Shown here in pieces: positions 1 to 23,796 of a stretch of DNA of 34,876 nucleotides. A program made the position numbers and the translations under genes. Below the pieces are notes generated by a model that ran no database searches, was not told the DNA's origin, and saw nothing but the letters and a program-made list of their open reading frames with translations. The stretch's first letter is position 1. Every line of letters starts with the position of its first letter. This stretch comes from Xylaria sp. FL1777 (Eukaryota > Ascomycota > Sordariomycetes > Xylariales > Xylariaceae), in the NCBI GenBank assembly GCA_022578965.1, contig MU400824.1, positions 1-34,876 on the forward strand. Reading direction: 5' to 3'.

Positions 1-1399
1 ATTTGCTATATAAACAATTAAAGTTATTTAATATATAACTTAAAAAAATAGTTTAATTAAAAGTAATAAATAATAAAAAGTAATAAGTTAATATAATTAA
101 TAAACTTATAAAATTATAAAAACTTTAAATTATTAAAGCTTAAAATATAGCTTAAAAAAAAATCATATTTAAAAAAATAAAACTATAATTATAAATAGTA
201 TAGTTATTAAACTAATTATAAACTATTAAAATACTTAGTTATTAAATAAACTTAAAAAAACAAAACTTATAAAACTTTAAAACAAAAACAAATAAAATTA
301 AAAGCTATAAAAAATACTATAGAAAAAAAACTAATAAAAATAAACAAAGTATTTTTATAGCTTAAACTACTTTAAATATAACAAAATAAAAAAGCATTAA
401 TAGTTAGTACAAAAATTAATATGTTTTAAAAACTAAAACTAGCAATTTAATTAATTATTAAAAGTTACTACTATAATAAAACTATAATAAAAAACAATAA
501 TAATATTTTATATTTAAAAGATTTAAAACATAATAAAATATTATAAAATTATTATATAATATATTATTGCTACTAATATTTATTTAATAAATTAAAAAAT
601 AATTAATTTTTTAAACAAATTATAAAAATAAAAATATAAAAGTTTTATAAATTAAAATAGTTAGTTATAACTATAGTTTATTATAAAAATTTACAAAAAT
701 TTGCAACATTTAAAAAAAATTCTAACTATATTTATAATACTAGTTTAAAAAAATATAAAAATAACTACTATAAATATTATTAGCTAATTAAAGCATAATT
801 ATATTAAAAAATAGTTATTAAAAATAAAAAAGCTTAAAAGCTATAATTTAAAGCTTAACTAAAAGCAAAAATAAAACAAAGCATAATAACATTTAAAATA
901 TAAAATAAAACAAACATTTAAACATTTAATAAAAAAAAGTCAAAAAACAAAATAAGCATTTGCTAAAAAAGCAGCAAATAGCTAAAAAAACTAAAGCTTT
1001 ATATAAAGTTTAATGTAATAACTAAAAAAATCAATTTAAAGTTAAACTTATATATTAAAAAAAAAAATATAACACTTTAATTAATTTAAAAGTATAAGCT
1101 AACATAATTTTACTTAAAGTAACAAAACAAAATAAAATTTCTTAAAAATACAAGCAAAAATCTTAAAAAATTAAAAGATTTAATAAAAGTACTTTTAGCT
1201 ATAATAACAGTTATATATTTAAAAAAACTAAACTTTTTAATATATTTATATAAAAACATAAAAAGCAAATTATATTAAATATTGCTAATATATTTAATTA
1301 TAATATTATTTTAAAAATACTATAGCTAAAAATTAGCAACTTTTTAATTTAATAAAAAGCAAAAACTATTAATTAAAAAAATAAAAAATAAAGCAAAAA

Positions 1400-2815
1400 A
1401 ATTAGAAAAATCGCAAAAGAAATCCTAAACAAAATACTAAAAGTATATTATAAATTTTACAAACTATTTAAAAAAAAAAAAAAAAAAAAACTTCTTAAAT
1501 ATAGCTTATAAAACTATTATATTTTTATTAAAAAAAAATGTTAACTAAAGCTTTATTAAGTATATTATATAAGCTTAAACAAAACAAACGCTTTATAAAA
1601 ATATATTTAAAAAAATCTAGCAAAAAAATTCTTAAAAAAATTTTAGTTATTTGCTAAATATTTTATAGTATTAATACTTAAAATAAAAAATAAAAAACAA
1701 CTAATTAATAAAAAAAAAAAACTAGTATAGTAAATAATAATTAATTATTAACTATTAAACGTAATTATTATTACAAATAAATATTTTTTTATTTTATTAA
1801 TAACTATAAAAAAAAACATTAACTAAGCAAAATAATTTATAATAGTTAATATTTTAAATAAATATTATGTTATTAAAATAACTAAAAAAAAAAAATAAAA
1901 AACTATTATATAAACAATATATAAATTATATAAGTATATAGTTATGCTATAAAAACTATAAAACATATTAGCTAGCTTTTAATATATAATAATAACGATT
2001 TTACAGAAGTTTTTAAACAAATTTATGTTTATTTATTTAAACAATATTTTAATTTACTTTAAAACATTAAAAAAACATAAAAAACATATAACTTAAGTAT
2101 TAAAAATATTTAAACAAGTAAAATTATAACTTAATACAAAAAAGTATATATAGCATATATAAAAAATTAACTTTTTAAGATTTATAATTATTTTAAAACA
2201 AATATAAATTTAATAATTAAAAATTAATATAATATAAAACTAAAAGATATTTAACTTAGCTATTATTATAAATATATAATAAACATTAAAATTTTTAAAT
2301 TATGTTTAAATGTTAATTTAAAACTTTAAAAAAATAGCATTTTATTTTATAAAGTATATAAAAAAAAAATATAAAAGAAAATCTTTTTTAATTTTAAAAA
2401 AAGCTTAAAAAGCTTTTAAAAAACTAAAACTAAAAGTTATTTCTAATTTTATAATTAAACTACTTAATTTATAAAAAAAGAAAAAACTAAAAACTAATGC
2501 TTTAAATAATATAATTACAAAAGTTTTAAAACAATTAAAAAATAACAAAAAATAGCACTTAATAGCTTATTATTTTAAAGCACTACAAAATGCAGCATTA
2601 TAATACTTTATATATAACAAAAAACTATTTGTAATTATTATAGCACTTAAAAAGTAAAAACTGTTTTTTATAAAAACTATAAAACTAATTAAAATTTATT
2701 TAAATTATTAAAACTTAACAAAATTTATAACTATATAAAAAATTACTAAACAACATAAAAATTAAATAGTTTTTTTTTTTAAGTTTAACTTTAAAATATA
2801 TTATATTAAAAAAAA
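1400..2815 (+). pseudogene. Degraded reverse transcriptase/RNase H region of the Gypsy element
   Basis: Reading from about 1400 shows reverse-transcriptase-like traces. The clearest is Y-L-N-N at 2034-2045, where two Asp codons of the catalytic YxDD box have become Asn, as G-to-A RIP on the coding strand would produce. Downstream is a thumb/connection-like stretch near 2290-2400. An RNase H-type segment with HLIAYYFKALQNA lies from about 2556, then an IALKK.K segment and a degraded YTDHKNLTKF-type motif near 2687-2720. Many TAA and TAG codons sit where Trp (TGG) or Gln (CAA/CAG) is expected. This is a relic, not a gene. Confidence 0.75.
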
Positions 2816-3049
2816 AAAAACATTTAAGCAAACATACTTAATTAATAAAATTAAAAAAGATTTAAAGTTTTAAAAAAAAACATTTAAATATTATATTTTT
2901 AAAAAAATAAAAGCTTAAAAATTAAAGTTATATTTAAAAACTTTATAAATATATAGCTATAATAAGCTTATAACTTAAAAAAGTTAGCATAATTACAAAA
3001 ATATAAAAAATTAAAAAATAATAAGCTAATATATAAACATAAAGTTTAT

Positions 3050-3700
3050 TTACTAGAATTTTTACGAAATAAATTTATTAAAAAATTTTATAAATACTTA
3101 TTATATAAACACTAAAAAATAATAAAAATAGTTAAATAACTATAAAAAAAATACAATTTTTTAAAACTATAAAACATAGTTAAATTTATTATAAAAAAGT
3201 ATAATATTTGTAATAAAGCTAAAATAGCTTAATATAAACTTTATAAACTGCTATAATTTATATAAATACTTAAATAAGCATAGCATACTATTGCTTAAAA
3301 TTTTATTATAGCATTACTTTTATTAACTAATTTAGTTACAAAAATATAATATAATAAAATATAAATTATTATTAATAAACTTATTAAGTATGCTTACTTT
3401 TTATTATTTAAAGAAAATATAATAGCTAAACAACTTATATATACTTTTATATACTAATATTTAAATAAATATAAACTATTAAAAAAAATTGTTTTAAACT
3501 AAAATAAATTATTTACTTTTAAGTTTAAAACTAGCTTTTTTAAACTTATTAATATTAAACTAAAGTTTTTAACTATTTATTACTTATAAATAAATAAACA
3601 AACAAAAAAACTAAACTAAATATTAAAACAATATTTATAAAGTTATATTAACTACTAATAAAATAATTAAGTAAAATTATTACTAATAGCATAAATTTTA
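3050..3700 (+). pseudogene. Degraded Gypsy integrase region
   Basis: Traces in order are a zinc-binding-like HHCC region (about 3100-3230), a DFI segment that would carry the first catalytic Asp (about 3290-3320), a KYAYFL-like segment near 3385-3405, FTFKF at 3512-3526 and a degraded HPQTDGQTER-type segment near 3583-3612. That order is specific to Ty3/Gypsy integrases. The frame differs from that of the RT/RNase H traces upstream. Multiple stops make it non-functional. Confidence 0.75.
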
Positions 3701-4449
3701 TATAATATATTAATAAACAAAAATATAAATATATTTTTATATAAAGCTATTTATAAATAACAAGCAATTATTAAAAAACAAAAAAAAACATTAATAAAAA
3801 CACTTGCTATTTTAATTATAATACTTTAAGCAAAAACTATTATAACAAAAATTAAAACGTTATAAGTTAAACTGTAATTATGCTTTTAATTTTTATAATA
3901 ATAAATGTTAATATATTATAACAAAAAACAAACTAAAAAATTAATTTTTTAAAAAAAAAACAAAGTTTATTTATTATAATAAAAACAAAATATAAACATT
4001 AATATTCTTTAAATTAAAACAAAACAACTAAGCAATAAATTAAAATTTAAAAAATTTAGCTTTTTTAAAATTAAAAAAATTATTTTATTTATTAACTATA
4101 AACTATTATTATTAAAAAATATACAAATCTATTTTATTTTTTATATTTTTTTACTAAAACTAGCACTTATTAAAATACTTATTAAAATATAACTAAAAAT
4201 AAAAACAAATTAAAACGTTTATAAAATTAAAAGTATACTAAATTTTTGTTAAAACAATAATAACTTAAAATATTTTATTAAATAAAAAAAATATTTATAT
4301 ATTAATAATACTTAAAAACTTAAAAAACATTTAAAAACTGCTAAAATAGTTATAAATTAGTTTTACTGCTAATATTTTAACTGCTTAAAACTAAAAAAAA
4401 AAAGTTAACTTTAAAAAAAACGCTTAAAAAATCTTAATTAAATTTAAAT

Positions 4450-4970
4450 AAAATAGTTTATGCTATTTTAGCTTGCTTTTTTTATTATTTTTACTTTTTT
4501 ATTAACGCTTTTTGTTTTTTTTTAATATGCTTTATTTTGTTTAATTTATTTAAAAATTAAAGCTTTTGCTAAACTATTTTAATACTTTTTGCTTTTAAAA
4601 AACGTTTTTATATATAAAACTAAGCTAACTTACTTAAAACAAAGTTAAAGCTATTTTAAGCTTGTTTTAATTTTTTTTAAACTAAAAATAACTATTATTT
4701 TGCTTGCTTTTTTTTTTTTTTAAAACAATAATATTTAAAAACTATATTATTAATTAAGTTAATTAAAACTTTTAATTTATTATAAAAGCAACTAATATAT
4801 ATGCATTTAAAACAATAAAACATATTATTTGTTATTTTATATATTAATAACTAATTAAAGCAGTAAAAGCAAAGCATAACTTTATAACTAATAAAATTAA
4901 TAAAAAAAGCAAAAACAAGTTTTTGTTTTGTTTTAAATAAGCAGTAAGTTTTTTTAATGCGTTTTAATAT
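4450..4970 (-). pseudogene. Antisense Cys-rich ORF relic inside the Gypsy 3' region
   Basis: Base skew flips here: the + strand is A-rich up to about 4440 and T-rich from about 4450 to 4970, which suggests that the minus strand was coding. The minus-strand frame starting near 4960 runs a long way with a single stop and shows two paired-cysteine groups, C-x2-C at 4860-4871 and C-x2-C-x4-C at 4788-4815. A Lys-rich, coiled-coil-like tail follows toward 4460. This resembles the Cys-rich plus coiled-coil hypothetical proteins that accompany some fungal Gypsy elements as antisense ORFs. That link is from memory of the family and needs a search. RIP has degraded the frame. Confidence 0.4.
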
Positions 4971-5049
4971 TATAACATACAAAAAAAAAAAAAAAAAAGA
5001 ATACTTACAGAAAATTATTAAAACAATAATTTTAAAAAAAAAAAAATAA

Positions 5050-5543
5050 TATTATAAAATTAGCATAAAAGTAGCTTTTAAAGCAGCTTAATGCTTTTAT
5101 ATATACTTTATACTTTTTTTTTTGCTAGCTAAAACTAAAATTACATAATAATTTATTTAGCTTACTAAGCTTATAATAATTTAAAGCTTACTAAGCTTAC
5201 AGTAATTTAAAGCTTACTAAGCTTATAATAATTTAATGCTTACTAAACTTGTAATAATTTAAAAAAAGTTACTACTTTTTTTACTTTTTTTTTGTTTATA
5301 TAATTATGCACTTTTTATATTTAATTATTTGCTTAGTTTTAGTTTTTTAGCTATTAATTTTTTATAACCGCTAAGTATTAATATATTTATTACTTTTAAT
5401 TCCTTAAGACCTTTATTAATGCATAGTAGTAAAAATACCTTAAAAACTTCCTTAATGAACTACTATTAAAAATCCTATTATTACCTACAAATCAAGACCT
5501 TAAAAGCAAACCTGTTATATTAATATATAACAGGTTTATTACA
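5050..5543 (+). repeat. 3' LTR of the left Gypsy element
   Basis: This 494-bp segment aligns base for base, apart from transitions and about one indel, with 34370-34864. The start corresponds to TGTTACGAAAT in the better-preserved copy (here TATTATAAAAT), and the end is ATTACA, so the original ends were TG...CA. An A-run at 5034-5046 directly upstream fits a mutated polypurine tract, which marks this as the 3' LTR. The 3' half keeps more G/C than the 5' half. The short palindrome-like sequence at 5511-5534 (CTGTTATATTAATATATAACAG) is internal to the LTR. Confidence 0.8.
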
Positions 5544-6600
5544 TTATATTATTTTTATTATTTATGTATTAAGCTATAAACTATATATTTATAGCTAATT
5601 TTAAGCTATTAATATGCATTAAATATATTATTATATAAGTTAAAGCAAAAATAATGCTTAATATTAGTTTTAAAGCAATAAAACTATTAATTTAATAAAT
5701 TAGCAAAATGTTTAGTTTTTTTAAAAAATAAATAAACAATAATACAAGCATATTTATAAATAAAAAAAGAATTAATTAGCATAAATTAAACAGTTTTATT
5801 ATAAAATTAATTATACTTAAAAAATCTAAAAATAATAGCAAAGTTAAAAAAACTAATAATAATATTAAATAAATTATGCTATATAAAAGTTTAATTTATT
5901 GCTATTTTAATTTTTAAACTTTATTAAAAATAGCTATTTATATATATAATTAAACTTTAAAGCTTAATAATTATAGCAGTTATTTTTTGCTGTTTAAAAT
6001 ATAACTATTAAATTAATAATTAGCTATAAAAATTATTAATTATATTAAAAATTTAAATAAAAAAAAAAGTTAAATTTTAATAATATTTAATATAAAACTA
6101 TAAAGTATTATTAATATATAATTACTTTAATAGTTTAAAAATATTAAAAAACTAAATTTAAGCTTATTTATAAAAAAAAAAAGCTTAATTAAAACTTATA
6201 AAACTAATAATTAAGTTTTATATATTAAATAGCAAGCTAATAAATTTAAACTATATTATAATAGCTTATAAGCTATTATAAATTATTATTATAATAATAT
6301 ATATAAATTATAAAGCTTTAAAAAAATAACGTTATTTAATAAATATAATAATAATAACTTATTTTTAGCTTATAATAAAAATAGCTACTTAATAAAAAGT
6401 TTATAGTATACTAATAAATATATACTAAAAAAAATAAACAAAAATTAAAAATATTAATAATATAAATATTAAAAAGTATTTATAAATAGCTTTATTTTTA
6501 TAAATAGCTAAAATAGCTATTTAGCAAAAAAAATAATTATAGCTTTTAAGCAATATAAGCTATAATATATATTATATAATAGTTATTATATAAAAACCTA
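5544..6600. other. AT-rich RIP-like block without readable genes
   Basis: This 1-kb stretch has the same A+T-rich, stop-filled composition as the retrotransposon but lies outside its LTR. I could read no protein motif on either strand and found no matching repeat in the window. It is probably another mutated repeat, or flank reached by leakage of RIP. Composition returns to normal abruptly at about 6600-6640. Confidence 0.6.
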
Positions 6601-7009: not shown

Positions 7010-9881
7010 ATGGCAGTTTCGAGGGTGTCTCGGTTGTTGCAGCTATTTCGCACTGTCCTTCAGAAGTTCATTGACGGCTGTACCGGAGCCTTGACTGAGT
7101 GTAACGAGCTAGAAGACTTGCAAGACGCGTTAGTGTCCGTGAGGTCTAAGCTGAGGTACCTTATTCCTGCAGATGACACTGTCAAAAATAAAAGAGTTGC
7201 AAAATTAGACGGCATTGGGCCAGTATTAGAAGAAGCGCTCAAGGGCTTAGAGGATCTGGCCAAACCTGCTACCAAGGTGCGTTGCTTTGGGAAGAGGGTT
7301 TGCTATGCCAACGATGAACGCGCCAAATATTCACATATTTAACTAGACTTTTGGGGCGGCTCAACATCCAAAACTTGAAGTACTGAGGAATCTCAACCCC
7401 GAAAAATTCGATTACACCGATGTATTCCATCTCCAAGCTCCGAACTTTCTTGGCCTCGTAGCATCGAGCGTGAGCGGGGTAAACAGCTTTGACCAATTCT
7501 TGAAGAGATTCGTGACCAAAGAGCCGCCAGGTTCCCAGCCCGGTGCAAAGAAGTATCTAGCCGAAAATCCCGAGCTGAATCCATTTTATCGCCGGGACAA
7601 AAGAAACAGCCTCTTCAGCGCGGTTGACCAGTATTGGGAAAGTTGCACTAAGCTACCTTGTGAAGGTCAGCACCATCCAGTCCTGTTTCTGCGGCCACCC
7701 GAGGTCCCGGACTTATTGCTAGATTGCCTGTTCAGCCTGAAGGAGATAGAAGAGCCTCCATGGGGAGAGTGTAGGATTAGATGGCTAGAACGAAAGTACG
7801 TGACGCCTCCCAACTTGAGAGCAGCTGAAATGATTACGGAACTGATATTGTATAGACAAAACATTAATACCTGGAAATTTGTCAAAGAACTTGAATCACG
7901 AGCTGGGCGATGCTCTCGAATGCACGCTCAGAGGTTGATTCTAAACTTCGCTGACACCATGGAGGCACAACCTGATTGCATCGGGAAGCTTGGGTCGGAG
8001 GTGTTAGATCAAAAACAGCGGCCTAGCTTTGAATTGGCGACGCTGGTGAGCCTAGGCGATATTCTTGCGCAGTCCACAGAGGCACCAGTGCTGAACGAGG
8101 AAACGAAAATGCTGCTGGCTTTCGCACTTGCGTTCGGGGTTCTTGCTTGGTCCGGATCCTACTGGCTTCCAACACAGCTGATTAAAGATCATATTTATTT
8201 CCTTCAGGACAAAGAAAAGTTATATCTCGAGCCCGTCATTTCACCTCCATCTGGGAATGTACTTACGAGGACAGAAGTTGACCACGATCCATACCGTCCA
8301 GCTCTTGGCGTCATTCTCGCAGAGCTATGGGAAGAGGAGGGCTGGGAAGCGAGCCTTGAAGACAGTGACGCTGATAATCAAGATGCCGCCTCGGAGACGG
8401 AAGATCCAAACACCATGGTTTACCAGACCCGAAGCACATTTCAAAACATCGAGTGGAATAACAACGAGTTCTACGAAAACGCTGTTGGCTCATGTCTTGA
8501 AGTAATAGGGAGTGGTTGGATATCTAATCCGTTGATTCACGATGAGTTATACCAGGACTTTCTCATAGAAAAAGTATTCGAGCCATTGCTCCAACAGATC
8601 TTGGCAATACCGGACTGCGATCCCCTAAAATTAGCAAAAGCACTAAAGACGAAGACAATGCCACCTATTGAAAGAGCATCCCAACCAACAATCCACCTCA
8701 CAGACTGCAGAAACACCCCGGGGTTCAGGTAAGTATATCTACAAGAAAGTGATACCGTGTACTAACTAAAACATCTATAGTGATGTGAAAGTAAAGCATT
8801 CACTGGGGTTTCTAGGTGAATTTAAACCGATTGTCCGGCATTTCTGCCTGAACAAGGAGAATGAGAAGTATTTTCCGGCGCTTAGCGATCGGCGGAAGGT
8901 GAGGATAGCCATTTTAGACACCGGCTTGGACCTTTTGCACGGCCAATTCGCGCCCAAGTTAGATAAAATATGCTTCAAAAACTTTGAGGCCGACTGCTGC
9001 AATGATGATAGCACAGATTGTGTTGACTATAAGCATTGCAAAGATGAGGACGGGCATGGAACGTTTATTGCTGGCATTGTCGACAAAGTCTGGGATATAT
9101 CCGAGCTTCATGTTGGGAAAGTTGCAAGCAAGCGCGAAACGGCTCGAAATTACACACAATTTGTTGATAGTGTTGCTAAGGTATGGTCGTTAGCCTCCAG
9201 AATTGCCCATATGTGAACTAACGGTGATGGTAGGGCATACTTTGGGCTTGTGACCGGTGGGAAGTGGACATCATCAACCTCTCCTTAGGTTTCCCAACGT
9301 ACAAGGAAGCCCTACGCCCTATCCGTGATGCGCTTAATCATGCCGCTAATAAGCGAGTCCTAGTGTTCTCTGCATGCCATAACTTCGGCAATAGTAGAGG
9401 TGCTCCGTGGCCTGCTAGCGAAGCTGGCCTTACGATCCCTGTCACGGCCGCCGACATGACTGGAAAGCTAGCGTCGTTCGCGCGAAGGCCGCAACCATCA
9501 AGAAAGAATGTTATGGCCTTGGGCGAGTCTCTCGAGTCAAGCTATGCTCTCCCAGGATCCCAAACTGTCCATTTCGAGTCAAGACGCCTAAATGCTACTT
9601 CATTCGCCACACCGATAGTAGCATGCATGGCCGCCATTGTGCTCTATGTCTTGAACAACGTGAATTACCCATATGGTCAAGAGGATGCCTCCCAAGAGCT
9701 CCGGACTTTTAAAGTGATGGAAAAAGTCTTGATTGACACGTTTGGTGAACATGAAGACATCGACTTGTACTACCTTAGACCAAGCTTTTGTTTGCACAGA
9801 ACTAAGGACTCATGGCAACTCGGAGAGAATATTAGGTTTATAGTGAGGAAAGAGAAGGCTAACAATGATGAATCAACATAG
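7010..9881 (+). CDS. DUF7580-subtilisin (peptidase S8) fusion protein, HET-Q2-like
   Basis: Four exons are inferred: 7010-7276, 7347-8728, 8781-9180 and 9234-9881, giving 898 residues. The introns start GTGCGT, GTAAGT and GTATGG; the second has a perfect TACTAAC branch site, and all joins keep frame. Residues about 1-550 resemble the fungal DUF7580-type alpha-helical region (conserved core LLAFALAF near residue 345, then IYFL). Residues about 590-830 are a subtilisin-like domain. Its visible triad is Asp596 in ILDTG, His642 in DGHGTFIAG and Ser806 in ATSFATP; the oxyanion Asn region is HNFGNSRG, near 732-739. There is no signal peptide, so the protease is expected in the cytosol. The gene lies tail to tail with a gasdermin-like gene 192 bp away, matching known fungal protease/gasdermin pairs in which an S8 protease cleaves the gasdermin. 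The protease call is firm; the pairing is inference. Confidence 0.85.
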
Positions 9882-11717: not shown

Positions 11718-14700
11718 CTATTTTGTATCTTTAGAAGAGAGTTCCTGCAGTCGATCGAGGATTAAATGTTGAGCGTGGACGAATCGCGCTGCATCATCAG
11801 ATGTCCAACCCCGGCGCTTTTGGCTCTTAACAAGGAATTCTTTCGTGATTGGAAGTTTGTCATCACTGATCTTCTCCTCCATAAAGCCAAATATCCGGCT
11901 AGGTTTATAAAGCAGAACTAAGGTCGCAAACACAACTCTGTATTCCTCGCATACCTGGGAAACGAAGACTTCCATCTGCTCTGGATGGAGGCGTAGCATC
12001 GATTTGCTGATCTCCTGCCTAACATCCGAAGGATTGACTATATTCGTGTGATTACTTTCCCGCCCGCTCAGCACGTTTCTAATCTTCAGTACAAGGCTAT
12101 TGGCAGGAAACTCGATTCTCATTGCCTCACCTAGTCTGTGCAGCGAATCAATCAGATGTCGGCCTTTTTGGAGGTCATCCCACCCCGGACTTAATGGCGG
12201 GCCGTCACCGAATGGATCTGGTAGAATGCGCTCAAGACGCCCCATCTTGTTAACGAAGAGGGACAGGAGAGAATAGTCACTAGTCGCTGAAAACCTGTCC
12301 ACGAGAGACTCTTCGAAGACCCCATTAACAGAAATCCATAACTTAAACCTAGTGGCAAGCGTGCGACTGAGAGCCTCATACTCCCTGTCATCGTAGGATA
12401 GCAGTGCGATTGCGCATTCAATAAGGCCGGCTTTCCTTCGTATCTCCTCAATCGTTGCATTACCTGACACGTCTCTCGCGGGGAAGTGGGACTGGATTGG
12501 GCCCTGGTCTGTATCTTGTTGTCCAATGCCTAGGTACTTCAACGCAGGATCCAAATAATATTGAGGTTGATGTGCAAAGAAGTTCGTGAGTTGGCCGTCT
12601 TCGTATTTGTGAACGGACCTAAGATGCTGTACAAGGTGGTCTTTTCGTGTGAACCCCTTCTTGCCTTGATACAAAATGCATTCAGGGCATGGATATTCAG
12701 GGACTAAACCGTTATTGCTTCGAACGTGACGTTCTAAGGTGTAAAGATTCGCGAACTCTTTTCCACAAAGACACTTGGATGGATGTGATTCGCTCAGGAC
12801 TAGGTGTTGTTCCACGTGAGATGAACTAGAATATTCATGTAAAGTGTACGGAGGTAGTTGATTTATGAGATCATGTTGCCGGTGCTCAGTAACCACATCC
12901 TGCGGTGATTCCGAGGTATGAACTTTGAGGGCTCCGATATTTGGCTCTTGGTGGTCTCGACGTGAGACCTTGTATATGCTCAATATACCCGATATTTGGC
13001 TTGATTGATCTATGGAAGTTTGAGTGAAGTCGTCACTCCGGGACGCAAGCCCATCTTCATCCCACGAATCCACAACGGAGCTGGCTGTAGAAGTGCGACT
13101 ATACCCTATGGATTCACGTTCGTCATGCAGAACCTTAGTAGGGTTTGGAGCGAGAGCGCGCCTGGGATTCGTGGAATCATGAATTTTTAACGAACTCTCA
13201 AAGGCTCCATCACTAATAAGGTATTGGAAACATTTTTGCAAAGGTAGCGTCACCTTCTCGAGCATTTGCCGTCTCCAGCTACCTACCACCCCGGTGCCAT
13301 TATCAGCCATTGGCATCATCCGACAGCCAACCAAGCACCATTCTATAGCATCGACGTACTCCTGTCCAGCCTCTTCATTTACGTCTTTGCGCCATTCTAG
13401 CGCGGCAATCAGGTCAAACATGGTGTTGGTCTTGGGATCATCTGATGAAGGAAACCGCAACCTCGCAGGATGAGATTCGATGGTCATATTGAAGCAGAGT
13501 TCTAAGAGCATGATTCCTAGCCTATTCACATCCAAAATGTACTGAGTGCGGAGCGATGTTTCAGAAGTCGATACGTCGATAAAGCGTCGTGTAACGAAAG
13601 GGCGGTCAAGAAGAAGATATCAGGATCTTCAGCATCGGCAGGAATGAATATGGAATTTTTACTCCAGGGATTCTCCAAAGTCTCTGGGAACCAAGATGTA
13701 TCTTTTAGCTGTATGAAGGACGACGATATTGCAACCGCAAGGTAATAGCGCTGCCGGCGAGTCAGCCTTGGCTTAACTCCCTCCCCTATAAATTCGGAGA
13801 GGCTCTTGCTTGTTGCGTTGCATGGTCTGCCAGGACAGATATAAAACTTGTCATGATACTCGCCTCCATCCTGATCCCTTAAGTATCCAATGCTCGAAAC
13901 GCCATTTAGGCTACTTCTATTTCCTAAAGTGGTGCAGAGATTATTGATAGGCTGGTTTTCGAATGACATGCTCGAGTTGGTGCTTATGTGCTTCTCTGCT
14001 GAAGGAGTATCGGCGAACTTGACCGTGATCTTCCGTTTCGATCCTGGCGCCCGTCCCATTCCTGCTTCCCTCTGAGATGATGCTCGGATAGAAGGCTCTG
14101 TAACCTCCTGCCCTATCTTGACTATGACTGGTAAAGTAGACCATTCACCATTTCTTGTGTGTGTAGAGAGAACTAATCGAATCTCTTGATCTGAACTGTT
14201 TAACCTGGGTTGCAATTCGAAGTGCGACGAATGCCGGTCTGGGCATTCACATTTCCACGCTGTGAACAATGCTTTGTAGAGTTTGTCGGCATGGCGCCAG
14301 AAGTTACAGAGAGCAGCCTCCATAGACCCCACCCTAATTTTGTCGATAGGATGCGAGATTGAGACACTGTCGTTCTTAAGAATGAGCTTCCCGAGAATGT
14401 CGTTGCATGCCTGTATATCATCAAACACGTCCTTACACACGCTCTCGCCAAGGGTGAACTTGACACGGAGAACTTGGGATTTGGTGTCTCTTGGCGCATC
14501 GAGCCGCTCTTGCGTGAGTGTAGTCTCAGTCTGTCGGGGCTCCTATATAGACGTAGACGCATCAGCTTAAGGGCATGATTCACTTGAGGCTTGCTCCATG
14601 CTGAGTACCAACCTTTTCCCCGGAGACGCCTTCGCTTATGTCATTATTAGCCACGTGTATCTCTTTGAGGAATTGATTCAGTGCTGAGAAGACCCGAATA

Positions 14701-17361: not shown

Positions 17362-18257
17362 TTATAATATAGTAAAGAGTAATGATCCGGCGACAGCAGC
17401 GAATGCTAAGCTGGCAACGCCTGCTGGCGTCATGTTCGAGCCGAGACCTTGGGGCGGACTAGTCGTGCTTGTGTTCATGGAGGCGGGTGTTGTGCTTGAT
17501 GTGGGCGTGCTGTGGGTGGTCGAGTTCGACGGGACAGTCGTGGTAGACGGCAAGCCAGAAAGTGTCGTGCTGTCACTGCTCGCCACCGTGCTAGTCGTAC
17601 TCGGCCAGGGACTGAAGACCGATAACGAGCTCGTTGTGGTTGTCGCTGCGGTTGTCGCCGAAGATAATGCGCAAGCCAAAGACTGCGTGAAGAATTGTGT
17701 TGCGGTTTCATACACCTCTGTATCGACATCCTTGCCGATAGGCTGACATCCAACTGCGTCCTCGGCCAAAGTGGCGAAACCGTAATAGCCCTCTTCGCAG
17801 CACCATCCCCGCGTGCCGTCGCTGTTGTAGGCCCATGCATTCCACGAAGACACCGGACACTGCAGCAAAAGAGGTGCAAAGTCAGAGAGACGTGCGTGAA
17901 CGTCAGGAAGTATTTATTTACCTGAGGATGGTCGTTCGTCTCTGCAGCACAGTCCTGGCCTTTACACACCACCCCATATTAGCCTCATATGGCAATCAAC
18001 ACACGTGGCATAAGTTGTGGCATCTTACCAGGAGGACAACAGTATGCTAAACTAGTGCCATCAAACGACGGAACGACTAAGCATTCGAATCCGGAGGGGC
18101 AACATCGCGGTTGTAGTCCTAAGCCGCACGAGACAGGCGCGTCCGAGTTACAACCGCTCGCTTTTCTAATGGGCCAGCCGCCGCTGAACCCGCAAGTCGA
18201 GTCCTTTGCAAACACGCTCGACGATATCAAAATCAGAGGGAGTAAGACGCCAATCAT
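17362..18257 (-). CDS. GPI-anchored cysteine-rich cell-surface protein
   Basis: Three exons are inferred on the minus strand: 18257-18029, 17959-17922 and 17859-17362, giving 254 residues. The introns begin GTAAGA and GTAAAT and end AAAG and GCAG, and both joins keep frame. The first 17 residues (MIGVLLPLILISSSVFA) form a signal peptide. The mature N-terminal half is Cys-rich with CC pairs (RCCPSGFEC, YCCPPG, GWCCEEGYYG), the pattern of fungal secreted or wall proteins with paired cysteines. Then comes a long Thr/Ser-rich stretch expected to be O-glycosylated. The C-terminal hydrophobic end (VASLAFAAVAGSLLFTIL) after small residues fits a GPI-attachment signal. No enzymatic motif is visible. 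Confidence 0.8.
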
Positions 18258-18998
18258 TTTGACTGGACAACCGATTCACGGGCGCCGGAAACAGAGGAGG
18301 ACCCAGAAATGATCAGGAAACGGCGCTGGGAAAGGTAACATATATAGAACTTGCATGAACCGTCATTCTAACTTGTTTCGCTTGATAAACCTGGTCAAAG
18401 TCAATACGAGATACTGAGCTGGCTGGGCTGGGCTAGGCTAAGCGACTGCAATCCCTGTCTCGACCGTTACGCACTGCAGCCGTCTAGCCCTATCAAACTA
18501 TTTTTAGAACCCATTTAGGAAATACTGCGTATACGATCGCAAGAGGAAAGTGACAGGACCGATTACGGAGTACTTGATGTTTATTCAATGCGCCTACGCA
18601 ACCGGAAGCTCAAGCGTTCATCGTGACTAACGTGCCCTCATTTCGGTTAGGCAGTCCGCCAGCAAGGAACCGATCCTCCTACCTATAAGAGGATAGCGTA
18701 CACTACTACGCAGTACGCAGGCGGCCTTCAATTAACGAAGCCTTGATTCTTGAACTCTTCTCGTCATGTTTATCGGCAGAAGCAAGTCTAGGACTCCAAG
18801 AACATATTATGATGGCATTTTAGTCTCTGTGGATTTGCAATAAAGCTAGCTGCTATATTAGCTCGGACACTGCACCGTACGTGGGTACTCTGCTGCAAGA
18901 GGGGTAATGTTCAGATAAATGCTCTGTATGCTGGATTGTTACGGAAGAAACTCGGAGAGATGCCATCAATATATATCAAGGAAAGAAAAGAATAAGCA
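18258..18998. other. Intergenic region
   Basis: This is about 740 bp between the start of the GPI-anchored protein gene (18257) and the stop of the nuclease-like gene (18999). It holds the promoter of the former and a small GCTGG/GCTAG micro-repeat near 18418-18442. No supportable ORF or RNA gene is seen. Confidence 0.5.
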
Positions 18999-20578
18999 TC
19001 AATCTAGAACATTGGTTTGGAACCATGGCATGTAAACATCTCTCGCCCATGCCGTCAGCTGTCTCACGCCGGCAATGATAGAATACGTCTCCAAGCAAGT
19101 CTGAGTTGTGCCAAATTGGCGATCGGCCCACAGCTTCGTCTTTCGACTTTCACCTTCGTAGGTGGAAAGAACCAGATGCCATCGATGGCCCTGTACAATG
19201 ACGGCCGGGATGAAGCCAAGATCTGATAGGATCAAGAGCACCTTAGCCTTAAACTCGTCTTGATCTTCCTGTGTTGGAGGAGGAGGAATCTCCACGTCGA
19301 CTTCGGTCCGTTGCCTTTGCCTTCGAAGCTTGTCAGCGACAGCCCACCGGAGAAAGGCCCATTGCGAAGCGTGCCAGATACCGATCTGGAGCTGTGCCGC
19401 GTCCCAGTGAACATCGGGCTTCTTAGTCTCGATGCTCAGCACGAGAGGGCGCGTAGCAATGGGGACAAAGTCGGTATGGTTGACGGTTGCCGTTGGTGTG
19501 AGGCGGCAGAATTCGGTCATCTTTGCGCTTAGGTCTGCACGTTGATCGGTCGATGCATATACGCATAGGTCAATCATCTTAGCCGGGGACCAGATGGGCT
19601 TGAGTGCGCGATGTGGACGGGCGGTGGTACTGTGATCAATGAAGCAGACGAGTTAGATAAGACGCTTTTCTCCCATCGATGTCGGACGTCTTGCTTCTAG
19701 TACAAGACAAGGCCAAGACGGCACCGCCGTACGTACCAGTTCATGGCGTTGAAGTCATCGCATTGATGTCCATCGCGATCCTCCAGAATGCTTTCCAGCA
19801 GACGCAGATGGACCCGACAGTTCCATGCAACCTCTTCGTAGCTGTGTTGCTGAGACTCGCTTGCCTTCCTGCATATCCTCTCGACCTCTTCGAAGGCGGG
19901 GATTCGACCGGGCAGTGTATCGGCTTCGGCGGGGGGTTTGAACGAATGTCTCCATCGTCGAGGCACCAGATCCCGTGCCTCGACGTGTTCCATGATGGTA
20001 GGCTCTAGAGCGTGCGGTAGAATGTCGTGGTTGCATCCGATCTCCTCCATGGCGATGACCAGCTCACGGGCGACGGCCGGCAGCTCATCAAGCCGGAGAG
20101 GATTGATCTCAATGGCGGGATCGCTGAGTCGAAGATTCAACATCTGCTTCTTGGGCGACGAAGCGCCGGATGGCGCCGATGAGGACGGCATCGAGATCGA
20201 TTCGGAGAGATAAATAGAGCCGCCTGCTCCGCCCGCTCCGCCGGCGCCTGGGCGAGGTATGATATCGAAGTCTGCAGCAGCGGCGGCAGCCGCGACATCG
20301 TCATCGTCATCGTCATTATCATCATAACCGCCGGTGTTGAGACGGTTGAAACGTCGTCTCTCTTTCTTCGGTGTTGACGCCATCGTCATCTCGTTATTCT
20401 CATCGTCGTTATCGTCATCGTCATCGGCGGTGTTGAGCGAATCGGGAGGGCTGGTGCATTGTTTTTGTTGTTGTTGATCTCGCTTTCGTTTCCTGGACCC
20501 CCCCAAAGAAACGGGGACAATATCACGATCTGCGGGCAGAGAATGGATCCAAGAAATAATGGAGTCTCTGTCATTCAT
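18999..20578 (-). CDS. PD-(D/E)XK nuclease-like domain protein
   Basis: Exon 1 is 20578-19737 and exon 2 is 19629-18999. The intron starts GTACGT and ends CACAG, and the join makes TGT (Cys) and reads CTTARPHR, giving 490 residues. The N-terminal third is low complexity: KRKR, poly-Gln, Asp-rich runs and poly-Ala, encoded by GTC/CAT-rich microsatellite sequence at about 20275-20430. The C-terminal part matches a fungal PD-(D/E)XK-like family. Visible features are EVAWNCRVHLRLLE, the putative acidic residue Asp301 in MIDLCVY, VNHTDF, and an E-x-K motif (Glu348, Lys350) in LSIETKKP, followed by AAQLQIGIWHASQW. The catalytic signature is present, but substrate and role are unknown. Family members are frequent in accessory regions. 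Confidence 0.8.
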
Positions 20579-20982
20579 GGCGCGTCATTATATGTCTCGA
20601 TCCTCGCCCTTTACCTTCATGGTATTCATGCATTGTGGTGGTAGAGGTTACCGTGGAGGTAGAGGTGGGAGGTGAAGTGATGGCAGGTCTTGGATCCATG
20701 GTGTAATAAAAGACATGAAGAAGTTAACCCAGCAACCATCATTAAGAAGTTGTGGGCACTATACCTATTTAGGAAACGTCTTCATTCCGCAAGTCTTTTA
20801 ACTCCGTTATCCCGTTCGATGGAGAACTAACGTCATCATCTTCCTCGTGGCCATATTCATGTCTGTAGGCATGTATACTAAAAGATCGAATCAAATCAAT
20901 TGAGCTAATAACAAGGGCTCTTGAAGTAACTACGTGGCTAGATCCATAGGCCACAACAAAGCAACTCTCCCCCGCCTGAGTA
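20579..20982. other. Intergenic region with one short unassigned minus-strand ORF
   Basis: This gap includes the promoter of the nuclease-like gene (right of 20578), with GGTGG/GGAGGT micro-repeats at 20636-20680. A minus-strand open frame ends at 20769, starts no further right than the end of the SesB-like gene and contains an acidic stretch (HEEDDD). It matches nothing I know and may be chance. Confidence 0.4.
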
Positions 20983-22345
20983 TCATCTTTGCCACTTAGT
21001 AAAACCCCATTTATCCAATATGAGCCTCAGAATCACAAGCAGAATCGCTGTAAACTCCAGTGAGGCTTGAGTCGCAGTGTTACTCTTGCCAGTGATTTCG
21101 CAGCTGTTTCCGCCGCCAAACTGGCCCGCCCTATTCTCGCTCCCAGTGATGATGTTTTGATTCCGGTGGCCAGCCTGCGTGACTATGTTAGCCAAGCCAG
21201 TAATACTACTGGTATTATCTTCGTAGAGATGCGGTTCTTCTTTGCTGCTGCACCGGCGTGAAGCAAGAGAAGTGGCGCTCGTAACAATCTGCGCTATGTT
21301 ATCCTCCACAAGCTTATACCTGGGGTCGTCCATGCTTGAAAACTTGCAGATTCCTCTATGGTCAGCGTCAATCGGTATTTGACGCTCGCGTGTTCCCGGG
21401 AGCCCAAGCAAAGCTGACTTCTGATCGACAATCTAGAGCAAGAATCAGATCCACTCACAATACATCCATGGCAAACTAGAGCAATGGTACTGACAAGTCC
21501 AAAGGAACCCAAAGGCCGCGTCTCGTAGAAGCTGATAATCTGAAAATCTTCGAGCATTTGACGGAAGTCGTCCGTGATTATGCTTAGAACTGCAGAGTTG
21601 CTCTTCAAGGCGTCCATGAACGTGTTCCCTGGGTTCCTCGTCATACAACGACCAATACTTGCCACTATGTCCCCGAAGCCGGCATGGTTTCCTCCTTGTT
21701 GGGGCGTGGCGAAGAATACGAGCGCAATTGTTGATTCCCAAATGTTCTTGTATGTTGCATCAGCCTTCGTATGTACCAATGCCTATATGACCGTTAGCAA
21801 CTTATCGTAATGAAAATTGTGCTGTTACTTTGGGCTATCCGACCCTTTTGATTACCAACCCTCCTACAATAAGTTAGAGATCGAGACCATAGAGAACATT
21901 TAGCACAGATGTACTGTCCGAATTTGCTCCAGGTGATTCAATAAGTTTTCACTCTGTTCCCTAACACCTGCCGCCGATGATCCAAAGGCAACGTTTGAAT
22001 TATATCCAAAAAGACATATCCTCGCATGAGGAACACGTCTGGGTAGGAAATAGCGAAGCCAAAGCTTATCTTCAGACGTCCATGTGGCTTCTGCGTGGGA
22101 CTCCTTATTGAGAGGATTCAGGCCATGGATAGCGATGATGCTTGATTTATTTTAACTTTCTTTCGTTGAGAAAAGGTAAGGACTTGATGATGTGCCATGG
22201 TGGCCTACTCTATATTTGCCTCCGAAGGGTCCACGAGGATCTTGAGGAAATTCTGACCGCTTGCAGAGCGGGACACACGGCCGGCTGTGGCTGGCTCATG
22301 TTTGGATTTGGGGGCGTATTTAGCGACTAAAGAAAGGAGACCCAT
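20983..22345 (-). CDS. SesB-like alpha/beta hydrolase with C-terminal amyloid-type repeats, catalytic elbow missing
   Basis: The model is exons 22345-22209, 22140-21915, 21782-21495 and 21432-20983, giving 366 residues in frame. N-terminal features are LKILVDPSEANID then IIAIHGLNPLNK and WLRYFLPRRVPHARICLFGY, the usual oxyanion-loop part of the SesB/NLR-associated lipase-like family. Exon 3 has ATYKNIWESTIALVFFATP and GGNHAGFGDIV. The last exon has LGLPGTRERQIPIDADHRGICKF with the expected catalytic His. The nucleophile segment (normally ..F-x-CHSLGGLVIK) is absent: only GGLVIKR can be read, at 21862-21842, inside the 132-nt gap between exons 2 and 3. Residues encoded by 21204-21067 are three 18-residue repeats (I-T-G-x2-N-x3-Q-x-G-x2-N). 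A membrane segment (FTAILLVILRLIL) and a basic end follow. It is probably a catalytically dead but amyloid-competent protein. Confidence 0.7.
21067..21204 (-). repeat. Three 18-residue amyloid-type repeats (SesB-like protein)
   Basis: Successive units start at ITGLAN, ITGSEN and ITGKSN, exactly 18 residues apart. All have Gly at position 3, Asn at 6 and Gln at 10. The first two also have Gly at 12 and Asn at 15, and the third is cut short by the membrane segment. The same register is found in the two neighbouring genes. Confidence 0.85.
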
Positions 22346-22967
22346 GATAACCTTTAATGTACTTATTACTAGTAAAACACAACGTTGAGTCAAGATAGCA
22401 GCGATCTCGAGCCAGCTTTATCAAAAATCGTGTTTCCTGCGCCCAGTGCCCTCACGCCACATCGCAAGTTCTTTTAGGTTCTCGTCGCCGGTCTTTTCTC
22501 ATGTGAGAAAATAAAAAGCAATCCTGGACCAATTACCATGTAGAAATCATCGGCTCATCGCCATGCGAGGGTTACAGTGCATGGTGGCGGGGTCTTCTCT
22601 CTGTCTCTCGTAATATGAACCTCAAGTAGATAGGTACCTATATACCGAGCGGTGGCAGCGCTGCTACAAGCTACATAGAGGCTCCATATAGCATTGAAAT
22701 ATCATAAGCTGCTATCATATGATAGACTGAATCCCATTTCAATTGCCATCCCTGCGCTCGAGACTAAACAACTCAGCCCGCTCGTCAGTATTCGTTCCCC
22801 GTTTCATCGACGTGGCAGTCCGAGTTCCGGTACGTAGCCTTCTCCTGAATGGTATACTTACGATCTGATTCGCGCTAACCTCTGTCCTTACGCCTTTGTC
22901 ATATAGGCTGCAGTGCCTCAGTACCTCAGTAGAAGATCCTGTTGCTTCCTCTTCCTCGTCCACCACT
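22346..22967. promoter_or_regulatory. Divergent promoter region and probable 5'-UTR intron
   Basis: This interval separates the starts of the SesB-like gene (22345, -) and the small repeat/membrane gene (22968, +). A plausible leader intron lies just before the latter: GTACGT at about 22830, a GCTAACC branch site and ATATAG ending at 22910. No ATG in frame precedes 22968. The intron is inferred from signals only. Confidence 0.45.
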
Positions 22968-23315
22968 ATGCCAAACGAGCCTTCTGGGTATCGAATACCA
23001 CCGCCTTCATATCAAGAAAAGGCCAGTCGCGCGAGAATTCAGCCGCAGAGCAGCAATGATATGTACCGGAACTCCATCACGATCTATGGATCTGAAAACA
23101 ATTTTGACCAGCGTGGGGAATGGAACCGTGCAACGGCTCAAGGTTCTAAAAATCGTGTCAGACAGAATTCTTCGGGCACTTCTCCATGGATTCGCACTGG
23201 TATTGTTGTTGTGGTTGTATCAGGTGTGATACTCGCCTGGATTCCCTTATTGTTAGTCAGAATCCAGCGGGCTTGGGAAGGGCTTCAACGTACTATTCAT
23301 TATCGCTTCAAGTAG
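22968..23315 (+). CDS. Small single-pass membrane protein with PPxY motif and two amyloid-type repeats
   Basis: This single-exon ORF encodes 115 residues from the first ATG (22968). Residues 11-15 are PPPSY, a PPxY-type site that WW-domain proteins such as Rsp5/Nedd4 ligases can bind. Residues 39-68 form two 18-residue repeats (IYGSENNFDQRGEWNRAT, then AQGSKNRVRQNS) with G3, N6, Q10, G12 and N15 in unit 1, the same register as in the two neighbours. Residues about 78-97 (GIVVVVVSGVILAWIPLLLV) are a membrane helix. A basic amphipathic tail follows and ends YRFK. There is no signal peptide, so it is probably tail-anchored, with the repeats in the cytosol. I know no named family with this layout. 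The stop lies 4 bp from the stop of the convergent gene at 23320. Confidence 0.7.
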   Translation: MPNEPSGYRIPPPSYQEKASRARIQPQSSNDMYRNSITIYGSENNFDQRGEWNRATAQGSKNRVRQNSSGTSPWIRTGIVVVVVSGVILAWIPLLLVRIQRAWEGLQRTIHYRFK

Positions 23316-23319
23316 CTAA

Positions 23320-23796
23320 TTATCGCCTGACCCCAGGCATGAGCTTCTCGATGTGATCCTTTAGCCAATGTTTAAAAACTGTCAGAGGGCTTTTAAATAA
23401 CCCGGAATTGTGATTAGAAATGCGTTCTCCTGACATCTCTGCTGATGTTTGCAAATCTCTACCAGCAACCTCCACTTCGGTGTTATTAAAGTGAGCCTTG
23501 TGTTTATTAATGTCCCCACATTGTATTGTGTAGTTTTCCTTTCCTACTATGTCGCTAAGGTTTCCGGTCCCTTTCTGCCCTGTTACATTATCGTCGTGAA
23601 CCGTTGTGCTACACTGATCTTTGCCGTCCTGGACAGTGGAGTTGGAATCCCCATCAATTCGCTGTTTATTTAAGCTCCCTAGTTGACTCGCAAGGTTTCC
23701 ATTCCCAGTTGTCTCGCTCAAGTGGCCCTGTCCCTTTTGAGAGATACTATTTCCATCTCCACTGATGTGGGAGGTGTTCCAAGGAGGTGACGCCAT
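23320..23796 (-). CDS. Protein of five tandem 18-residue amyloid-type repeats with amphipathic C-terminus
   Basis: This single-exon ORF encodes 158 residues from ATG 23796. Residues 11-100 are five contiguous 18-residue units starting at 11, 29, 47, 65 and 83. Asn at position 6, Gln at 10 and Gly at 12 are invariant, Gly at 3 is present in four of five, and Asn at 15 in three of five. Unit 2 is TTGNGNLASQLGSLNKQR. A sixth, degenerate unit starts at 101. Such N-x3-Q-x-G-x2-N periodicity resembles curlin repeats and the G-x-Q-x-G core of fungal PP/RHIM-like motifs, and suggests a beta-solenoid with one coil per unit. The C-terminus (SPLTVFKHWLKDHIEKLMPGVRR region) is an amphipathic basic helix that could bind membranes. 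Function is inferred from architecture and neighbours only. Confidence 0.7.
   Translation of the reverse strand: MASPPWNTSHISGDGNSISQKGQGHLSETTGNGNLASQLGSLNKQRIDGDSNSTVQDGKDQCSTTVHDDNVTGQKGTGNLSDIVGKENYTIQCGDINKHKAHFNNTEVEVAGRDLQTSAEMSGERISNHNSGLFKSPLTVFKHWLKDHIEKLMPGVRR
23497..23766 (-). repeat. Five perfect-length 18-residue repeats
   Basis: Five units of 54 nt follow one another without gaps. DNA identity between units is low while the protein register (G3, N6, Q10, G12, N15) is kept. This indicates old duplication under structural constraint rather than a recent microsatellite expansion. Confidence 0.85.

What the first reader, a model, noticed from the sequence alone, without database searches (positions are those of the whole stretch)
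20983..23796. Three adjacent genes share one 18-residue amyloid-type repeat and end in membrane-active C-termini
A SesB-like hydrolase, a 115-residue protein and a 158-residue protein carry 3, 2 and 5 copies of I-x-G-x2-N-x3-Q-x-G-x2-N-x3 in identical 18-residue register. Each is followed by a membrane helix or amphipathic basic helix. Known fungal amyloid signalosomes (HET-s, sigma, PP/RHIM-like) couple a sensor to an executioner through a shared motif. Here a whole set of repeat-bearing, membrane-directed proteins is clustered, and two of the three match no family I can name. This is the best candidate for an undescribed system: an amyloid-templated membrane-disrupting or signalling module.
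Basis: partly seen in the sequence, partly recalled or inferred. Interest (0 to 1): 0.93.

Follow-up and report, generated by a model that had tools for sequence, protein, structure and literature searches.

The report
Membrane-linked curli-like repeat gene trio
Three neighbouring genes in a Xylaria fungus, all with counterparts in its relative X. venustula, carry the same strongly conserved 18-residue repeat and likely assemble into an amyloid-like complex at a membrane that would control a lipase-type effector, whose predicted active-site serine is missing in this strain.

Summary
The window is a whole contig of Xylaria sp. FL1777. Three adjacent genes encode 3, 2 and 5 copies of I-x-G-x2-N-x3-Q-x-G-x2-N-x3 in one register. 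All three have counterparts in Xylaria venustula, each on a contig of 297,855 bases, so probably one contig. Between the species the six consensus columns are identical in 56 of 58 cells, against 63 of 112 for the other repeat columns.

The SesB-like protein ends in a predicted membrane helix. The small one is predicted single-pass, with a PPxY motif near its N-terminus. The 158-residue one is mostly repeat plus a C-terminal amphipathic helix. In FL1777 the SesB gene lacks the segment with the nucleophile HSLGG; X. venustula keeps it.

No Pfam family matches the repeat, including sigma, PP, HET-s and curlin. No NLR carrying it was found, in an incomplete scan. Its half-repeat N-x-Psi-x-Q-x-G-x-x is the bacterial curlin half-repeat shortened by two residues.

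Best reading: a membrane-tethered amyloid-type co-assembly module, a new variant of fungal amyloid signalling. Amyloid formation, seeding and cell death are all inferred. AlphaFold gave no confident model of the repeats.

The parts
20983..22345 (-). SesB-like hydrolase gene, four exons 22345-22209, 22140-21915, 21782-21495, 21432-20983 (366 aa, F5Y12DRAFT_721376)
   Evidence: Exon model built here equals database protein P0004 letter for letter; 89% identical to X. venustula P0005
21783..21914 (-). 132-base stretch annotated as intron, at the place where X. venustula encodes 21 residues with the nucleophile elbow (HSLGG); only a remnant reading GGLVIKR is seen in one frame, beside stops
   Evidence: DUF676 is matched by P0005 (22.5 bits, cut-off 20.3) and not by P0004
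21061..21204 (-). Three 18-residue units in the SesB-like protein (residues 294-341; unit 3 runs into the membrane segment)
   Evidence: 15 of 15 consensus cells identical in X. venustula, first 14 positions of each unit counted
21010..21072 (-). C-terminal hydrophobic helix of the SesB-like protein (residues about 338-358)
   Evidence: Hydropathy 1.75 over 19 residues; predicted helix 330-350 in P0005, blocks 331-350 at pLDDT 58 and 80
22968..23364 (+). Small, predicted single-pass membrane protein gene, exons 22968-23251 and 23337-23364 (103 aa, F5Y12DRAFT_721377)
   Evidence: 71% identical to X. venustula P0003
22995..23021 (+). PPxY sequence at residues 10-18 (IPPPSYQEK; IPPPPYQEK in X. 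venustula)
   Evidence: the meaning of PPxY as a WW-domain ligand is recalled, not tested
23082..23189 (+). Two 18-residue units of the small protein (residues 39-74)
   Evidence: 12 of 12 consensus cells identical in X. venustula
23196..23251 (+). Predicted transmembrane segment of the small protein (residues 77-95)
   Evidence: Hydropathy 2.48 over 19 residues
23320..23796 (-). 158-residue repeat protein gene (no FL1777 record among the proteins returned at E up to 10)
   Evidence: X. venustula homologue P0001, 158 aa, E 2.9e-44; 56% identity without gaps
23497..23766 (-). Five 18-residue units of the 158-residue protein (residues 11-100)
   Evidence: 28 of 30 consensus cells identical in X. 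venustula
23323..23376 (-). C-terminal amphipathic helix of the 158-residue protein (residues 141-158)
   Evidence: Highest hydrophobic moment 0.57 in both species; helix 137-152 in the model, where only residues 140-152 reach pLDDT 50

Best explanation
Three adjacent Xylaria genes share a conserved 18-residue repeat and likely form a membrane-tethered, amyloid-like co-assembly module that would regulate a SesB-type lipase effector. Shown: the repeat, its conservation, counterparts of all three genes on contigs of one length in X. venustula, and loss of the nucleophile segment in FL1777. Predicted: the membrane segments. Inferred: the five-repeat protein acts as nucleator or linker. Its units stack with the juxtamembrane repeats of the lipase-like protein and of the small PPxY membrane protein as short beta-arches of curlin grammar. 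Stacking clusters the hydrolase on the membrane and switches on an output such as regulated cell death or growth arrest. In FL1777 the hydrolase has kept its repeats and anchor but lost its nucleophile, so there it could serve only as a non-toxic seed or scaffold, as HET-s is to HET-S, or it is at the start of decay.
For: Shared register in three proteins. Consensus columns identical in 56 of 58 cells against 63 of 112 other cells between two species (Fisher p 4.5e-9; without SesB 39 of 41 against 36 of 80). In two of ten units only the first 13 positions were counted, because they run into a membrane segment or tail, and the columns were defined from the same sequences. All three X. venustula proteins come from contigs of length 297,855, the two small ones with consecutive tags 397608 and 397609. 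The similarity is at protein level: DNA alignment of the repeat regions is at chance for SesB against the small gene (266 of 300 shuffles as good), not significant for SesB against the 158-residue gene (45 of 300), and marginal for the other pair (2 of 300), so a recent copy does not readily explain it. X. venustula SesB matches the serine esterase family DUF676, and its low-confidence model resembles lipases and cutinases, with no match at E up to 0.001. SesB-like proteins with a shared short motif beside other effectors are an established fungal amyloid-signalling layout. The published curlin kernel N-x-Psi-x-Psi-x-Q-x-G-x-x becomes the present half-repeat if one Psi-x step is removed; position 8 is a residue the paper allows at Psi (A, I, V, L, F, S or T) in 10 of 10 units of both species (unit lists).
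Against: No direct evidence of amyloid. AlphaFold on the 158-residue protein: pLDDT 33, pTM 0.19, from only 2 sequences, whereas curlins average 83 in the paper. The repeats of SesB were also unmodelled, pLDDT 22-28 over residues 271-330. Pfam's curlin model finds nothing in the genome. The other Psi position (17) fits the Psi list in only 5 of 10 units in each species, and position 8 is hydrophobic in the strict sense in only 7 and 5 of 10. No receptor was found. The cross-gene profile fails to find the 158-residue protein. The nucleophile is lost in FL1777. Only two species are known. The same-contig linkage in X. venustula is read from equal contig lengths, not seen as a map.
Confidence: 0.5

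Rival explanations
1. An ordinary NLR-controlled amyloid signalosome of the sigma or PP type, whose receptor is encoded elsewhere or carries a motif too divergent to detect.
For: The effector domain and clustering match the ses and hellp loci. The genome has many NLR candidates: 53 NACHT and 16 NB-ARC matches. Motif pairs encoded by non-adjacent genes have been looked for and discussed.
Against: No repeat was found near 40 of 53 NACHT and 16 of 16 NB-ARC matches. Pfam sigma has no match in the genome (the control genomes are not fungal, so there is no positive control). The window is the whole contig, and no NACHT or NB-ARC match lies on it. Sensitivity to divergent copies is limited.
Confidence: 0.2
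2. A structural beta-solenoid scaffold that organises a membrane patch, with the hydrolase as an ordinary resident enzyme and no templating or death output.
For: Two of three proteins have a predicted C-terminal membrane segment and the third an amphipathic helix. The spacing of turns fits a solenoid in principle (inference).
Against: SesB-type domains are tied, if indirectly, to fungal cell-death systems. The cluster was found in only two species, which fits immunity genes better than housekeeping, though the search misses distant relatives.
Confidence: 0.14
3. Decaying remnant: an old effector cluster losing function in FL1777, where the shared repeat no longer does anything.
For: The nucleophile segment of SesB is missing. 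The 158-residue gene has no FL1777 record among the proteins returned. The contig begins with about 6 kb of 11-20% GC.
Against: All other exons of the three genes are open and conserved. The repeat columns are the best kept part of the two small proteins' repeats. The last 27 shared residues of SesB, its membrane anchor, are identical in both species.
Confidence: 0.12
4. Chance convergence on a Gly/Asn/Gln-rich composition in three unrelated neighbours.
For: The profile trained on the other two genes does not recover the 158-residue protein (1,572 of 5,000 shuffles as good).
Against: Register and columns are shared and selectively conserved. Outside the trio the spacing G..N.....G..N occurs at one place, in a 47-codon frame seen in two overlapping loci, among 587,112 frame residues scanned, which include the window.
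Confidence: 0.04

Closest known systems
Sigma motif, ses locus of Nectria haematococca (SesA, SesB, HET-eN)
   Same: A SesB-type hydrolase with a repeated Gly/Asn/Gln-rich motif near its C-terminus, beside other genes with the same motif
   Different: The sigma units are GxGxQFNxx and GGTQNINT, three in all. Here units are 18 residues in fixed register and are followed by a membrane helix. The partners are not SesA or an NLR. Pfam sigma does not match.
PP motif, HELLP / SBP / PNT1
   Same: One motif couples a SesB-like lipase (SBP) and a second effector. The PP consensus FxGx(x)NxGLQLxGxNxGxL shares G-x2-N-x3-Q.
   Different: PP is a single pseudo-palindrome of about 20 residues. After Q the spacing differs (Q-x2-G-x-N against Q-x-G-x2-N). 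Pfam PF17046 does not match.
HET-s / HET-S with NWD2
   Same: A toxic protein and a toxicity-dead variant that keeps the amyloid motif; FL1777 SesB keeps its repeats without its nucleophile
   Different: 21-residue repeats, a HeLo pore-former, an NLR next door. Here the two forms are in different species and no prion is shown.
Bacterial curlin repeats (CsgA/CsgB)
   Same: Half-repeat N-x-Psi-...-Q-x-G-x-x, two per repeat; 5 repeats in the longest protein here, as in E. coli CsgA
   Different: 9 rather than 11 residues per half. I replaces Q in alternate halves. No match to PF07012, no confident AlphaFold solenoid.
GDQN motif of Fusarium oxysporum and the PUASM motifs
   Same: Recently found fungal amyloid motif candidates with G/N/Q signatures and clustered genes
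   Different: GDQN is NxxxGxQYxxxGxGDQNxVSxxxxQxN and is found in a probable NLR and a SesA protein; PUASM is associated with PNP_UDP domains.

Membership tests
Fungal NLR-associated amyloid signalling motif systems | Same short motif in products of adjacent genes | tested here: met
   Three genes within 2.8 kb (20983-23796); counterparts on contigs of the same length in X. venustula
Fungal NLR-associated amyloid signalling motif systems | Motif at the N-terminus of an NLR | tested here: inconclusive
   None near 40 of 53 NACHT and 16 of 16 NB-ARC matches; the scan is weak for divergent copies, and X. venustula's genome could not be searched
Fungal NLR-associated amyloid signalling motif systems | Known effector domain (SesB-like, HeLo-like, PNP_UDP and others) | tested here: met
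   SesB-like hydrolase by similarity to SesB-like paralogues in the genome (the name SesB-like rests on my reading of the family); P0005 matches DUF676 over cut-off, FL1777 P0004 does not
Fungal NLR-associated amyloid signalling motif systems | Forms amyloid and seeds its partner | not testable with these tools
   Needs peptides, fibrils and in vivo seeding
Sigma, PP and HET-s motif families | Match to Pfam NACHT_sigma, Ses_B (PP), HET-s or HET-S models | tested here: not met
   No such match at E up to 10 for five database proteins and the 158-residue ORF, though HMMER's filters drop most matches above 0.1; NACHT_sigma: 0 matches in the genome (no fungal positive control)
Curlin repeats | Match to PF07012 | tested here: not met
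   (E. coli among the control genomes did match)
Curlin repeats | Half-repeat N-x-Psi-x-Psi-x-Q-x-G-x-x (11 residues) | tested here: not met
   Half-repeat here is 9 residues, one Psi-x step shorter
Curlin repeats | Secretion through a Csg system | not tested
   No signal peptide predictor was run
SesB-like serine hydrolases | Nucleophile elbow HSLGG | tested here: not met
   Missing in FL1777; present in X. venustula P0005

The most novel reading that the evidence does not exclude
A receptor-free, membrane-anchored amyloid signalosome built on a miniature curlin-like beta-arch, a fold class I have not seen described in fungal signalling. Its soluble five-repeat protein is the seed. FL1777 carries a natural toxicity-dead lipase with an intact seeding tail, a second, independent evolution of a HET-s-like non-toxic prion partner.
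Probability: 0.15. Interest if true: 0.88.

Novelty: new variant of a known kind. Interest (0 to 1): 0.62.

Why it matters
Only about four or five fungal amyloid-signalling motif families, plus the provisional GDQN pair, are described in the papers seen. This would add one with a new sequence grammar, two partner proteins of no known family, and a layout in which the motif lies directly before a membrane segment in two of the proteins. It would also tie fungal immune amyloids to the curli type of beta-arch. It makes a concrete question testable: can a repeat-only protein, with no NLR, nucleate a membrane-bound lipase signalosome?

Tried and rejected
Sigma, PP, HET-s and curlin membership: tested and not met. 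Recent duplication of the repeat between the genes: no DNA-level support for two of the three pairs, marginal for the third. Structure: AlphaFold on the 158-residue protein (2 sequences) failed, pLDDT 33. On X. venustula SesB (2 sequences) the mean was 49, the hydrolase only moderate and the repeats unmodelled. Foldseek against the PDB with that model gave 0 matches at E up to 0.001; the best were cutinases, lipases and thioesterases, E 3.4e-3 and weaker. Sequence search of solved structures: 0 at E up to 10 for the 158-residue alignment and 0 at E up to 1 for P0005. Whole-genome protein searches for further copies of the repeat: only the trio, plus matches near chance at C6 (E 0.11, stops inside) and C54 and C20 (E about 0.5); two searches gave the trio alone. 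I first read the catalytic gap as a splicing puzzle; comparison with P0005 showed a missing segment.

Literature: none of the rows listed is, by title and start of abstract, a paper on this motif or cluster. These are the top 6 to 20 rows of each search in an open-licence library; nine papers were looked into, by passages, and one of them also by one section.
Full report
What the window is. The window is the whole of contig C319 (34,876 bases) of a 58.7-Mb assembly in 588 contigs. Two of its proteins are in the database as Xylaria sp. FL1777, from a contig of 34,876 bases.

The trio. (a) SesB-like gene, minus strand, four exons from 22345 to 20983. The model built here gives 366 residues and equals the database protein P0004 letter for letter. 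(b) Small membrane protein, plus strand from 22968, 103 residues in the database model (splice). (c) A 158-residue protein, minus strand 23796-23320. The database search returned one protein at E up to 10, X. venustula P0001, of the same length and 56% identical without gaps, and no FL1777 record. The small protein finds itself and P0003 of X. venustula, 71% identical. The SesB tail likewise finds only itself and P0005 of X. venustula; the whole proteins are 89% identical over aligned columns. All three X. venustula proteins come from contigs of length 297,855, and two have consecutive tags, so linkage is very probably conserved. No map of that contig was seen. The protein search needs shared five-residue words, so more distant relatives may be missed.

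The repeat. The 18-residue units read I-x-G-x2-N-x3-Q-x-G-x2-N-x3. In FL1777, N6 and Q10 are present in 10 of 10 units, G3 in 9, G12 in 8, I1 in 7, N15 in 6. Unit 3 of SesB and unit 2 of the small protein keep the consensus only in their first half. Shuffle tests are: the SesB tail is far beyond chance, the small protein is modest, and the 158-residue protein is clear by the pattern (post hoc) but not by the profile trained on the other two genes. The strongest evidence is conservation. Between the two species the consensus columns are identical in 28 of 30 cells (158-residue protein), 12 of 12 (small protein) and 15 of 15 (SesB, first 14 positions of each unit). The other columns are identical in 27 of 60, 11 of 24 and 24 of 27. 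Pooled with slightly different ends: 56 of 58 against 63 of 112. The columns were chosen from the same sequences, so the test favours them somewhat, and SesB is too conserved throughout to add much. The DNA of the repeat regions is not significantly similar for two of the three pairs.

Membrane parts. SesB has a C-terminal hydrophobic helix (hydropathy 1.75; predicted helix in the model) that begins where the third repeat ends; the last 27 shared residues are identical in both species. The small protein has one strong transmembrane segment (2.48) near its C-terminus, with a nearly identical N-terminus carrying PPPSY or PPPPY. That PPxY binds WW domains of Rsp5-type ubiquitin ligases is recalled knowledge. 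The 158-residue protein ends in an amphipathic helix with highest moment 0.57 in both species, but net charge +4 against -1, so the 'basic' feature is not conserved and membrane binding is uncertain.

A broken enzyme with an intact tail. X. venustula SesB reads RRPLIFVCHSLGGLVVKR; FL1777 lacks 21 residues there. The 132 bases at 21783-21914 hold a GGLVIKR remnant but no HSL in any of three frames. Accordingly P0005 matches the esterase family DUF676 and P0004 does not. An intact relative therefore exists, and the FL1777 protein cannot act through that serine. The rest of the gene is open and conserved. This resembles the published view of HET-s as a HET-S devoid of toxicity but able to propagate as a prion (passage). 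An assembly error in FL1777 is not excluded.

Receptor search. PF05729 gave 53 matches and PF00931 gave 16, none on the window's contig. Loci around 30 NACHT and all 16 NB-ARC matches (about 1.5 kb each side), and 2.5-kb stretches reaching about 2 kb upstream at ten further NACHT matches, were scanned with a unit profile and with spacing patterns. Outside the trio nothing scored better than E 1.4, and the spacing G..N.....G..N occurred at one place, in a 47-codon frame. Thirteen NACHT matches were not scanned in their own right. Pfam sigma has no match in the genome, but that search had no fungal positive control.

Comparison with the known. Papers were read as passages only (PMC5485727, PMC3321046, PMC516043, PMC9815663, PMC12881547, PMC8086366, PMC10192328, PMC7889193; PMC12261475 passages and section 12). 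The sigma units (GxGxQFNxx, GGTQNINT) and the PP consensus differ in spacing, and their Pfam models do not match. The curlin kernel N-x-Psi-x-Psi-x-Q-x-G-x-x differs from the half-repeat here by one Psi-x step, which would keep the in/out alternation of a strand. By the paper's own list of Psi residues, position 8 fits in 10 of 10 units in both species and position 17 in 5 of 10; counting only hydrophobic residues the figures fall to 7 and 5 of 10 (position 8) and 3 and 2 of 10 (position 17). This is an analogy: PF07012 does not match and AlphaFold does not show a solenoid.

Judgement. The trio is a real, conserved repeat-sharing cluster that includes a SesB-type effector. The most likely function is amyloid-type co-assembly at a membrane controlling that effector. 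It differs from described systems in motif, partners, predicted membrane anchoring and the absence of a detected NLR. The functional steps are inferred, hence confidence 0.5.

Noticed in passing
window 1-6000: GC content 11-20% at the left end of the contig against 43-53% from about 7 kb on: an AT-rich stretch, possibly decayed repeats.
   Followed up: no
window 7347-9881 (+): DUF7580 segment followed by two pieces of a subtilase (Peptidase_S8), probably one gene with introns.
   Followed up: partly
window 11718-14542 (-): A second DUF7580-bearing protein spread over two overlapping ORFs; one match is over and one under the cut-off.
   Followed up: no
window 18999-20584 (-): Two ORFs matching consecutive parts of the PD-(D/E)XK nuclease family PDDEXK_12, probably one gene, directly beside the trio.
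   Followed up: partly
window 17362-18275 (-): Cysteine-rich and Ser/Thr-rich ORFs with a hydrophobic start and end, reading like a secreted wall protein; a weak Lustrin_cystein match below its cut-off.
   Followed up: no
window 22995-23021 (+): Conserved PPxY sequence in the small membrane protein, a possible ubiquitin-ligase adaptor signal (meaning recalled).
   Followed up: partly
own genome G000, C7, C28, C337, C43 and others: More than ten further SesB-like loci, several within about 2 kb of NACHT matches (e.g. C28, C30, C60, C189, C68, C42), fitting all-in-one SesB-NLR genes.
   Followed up: no
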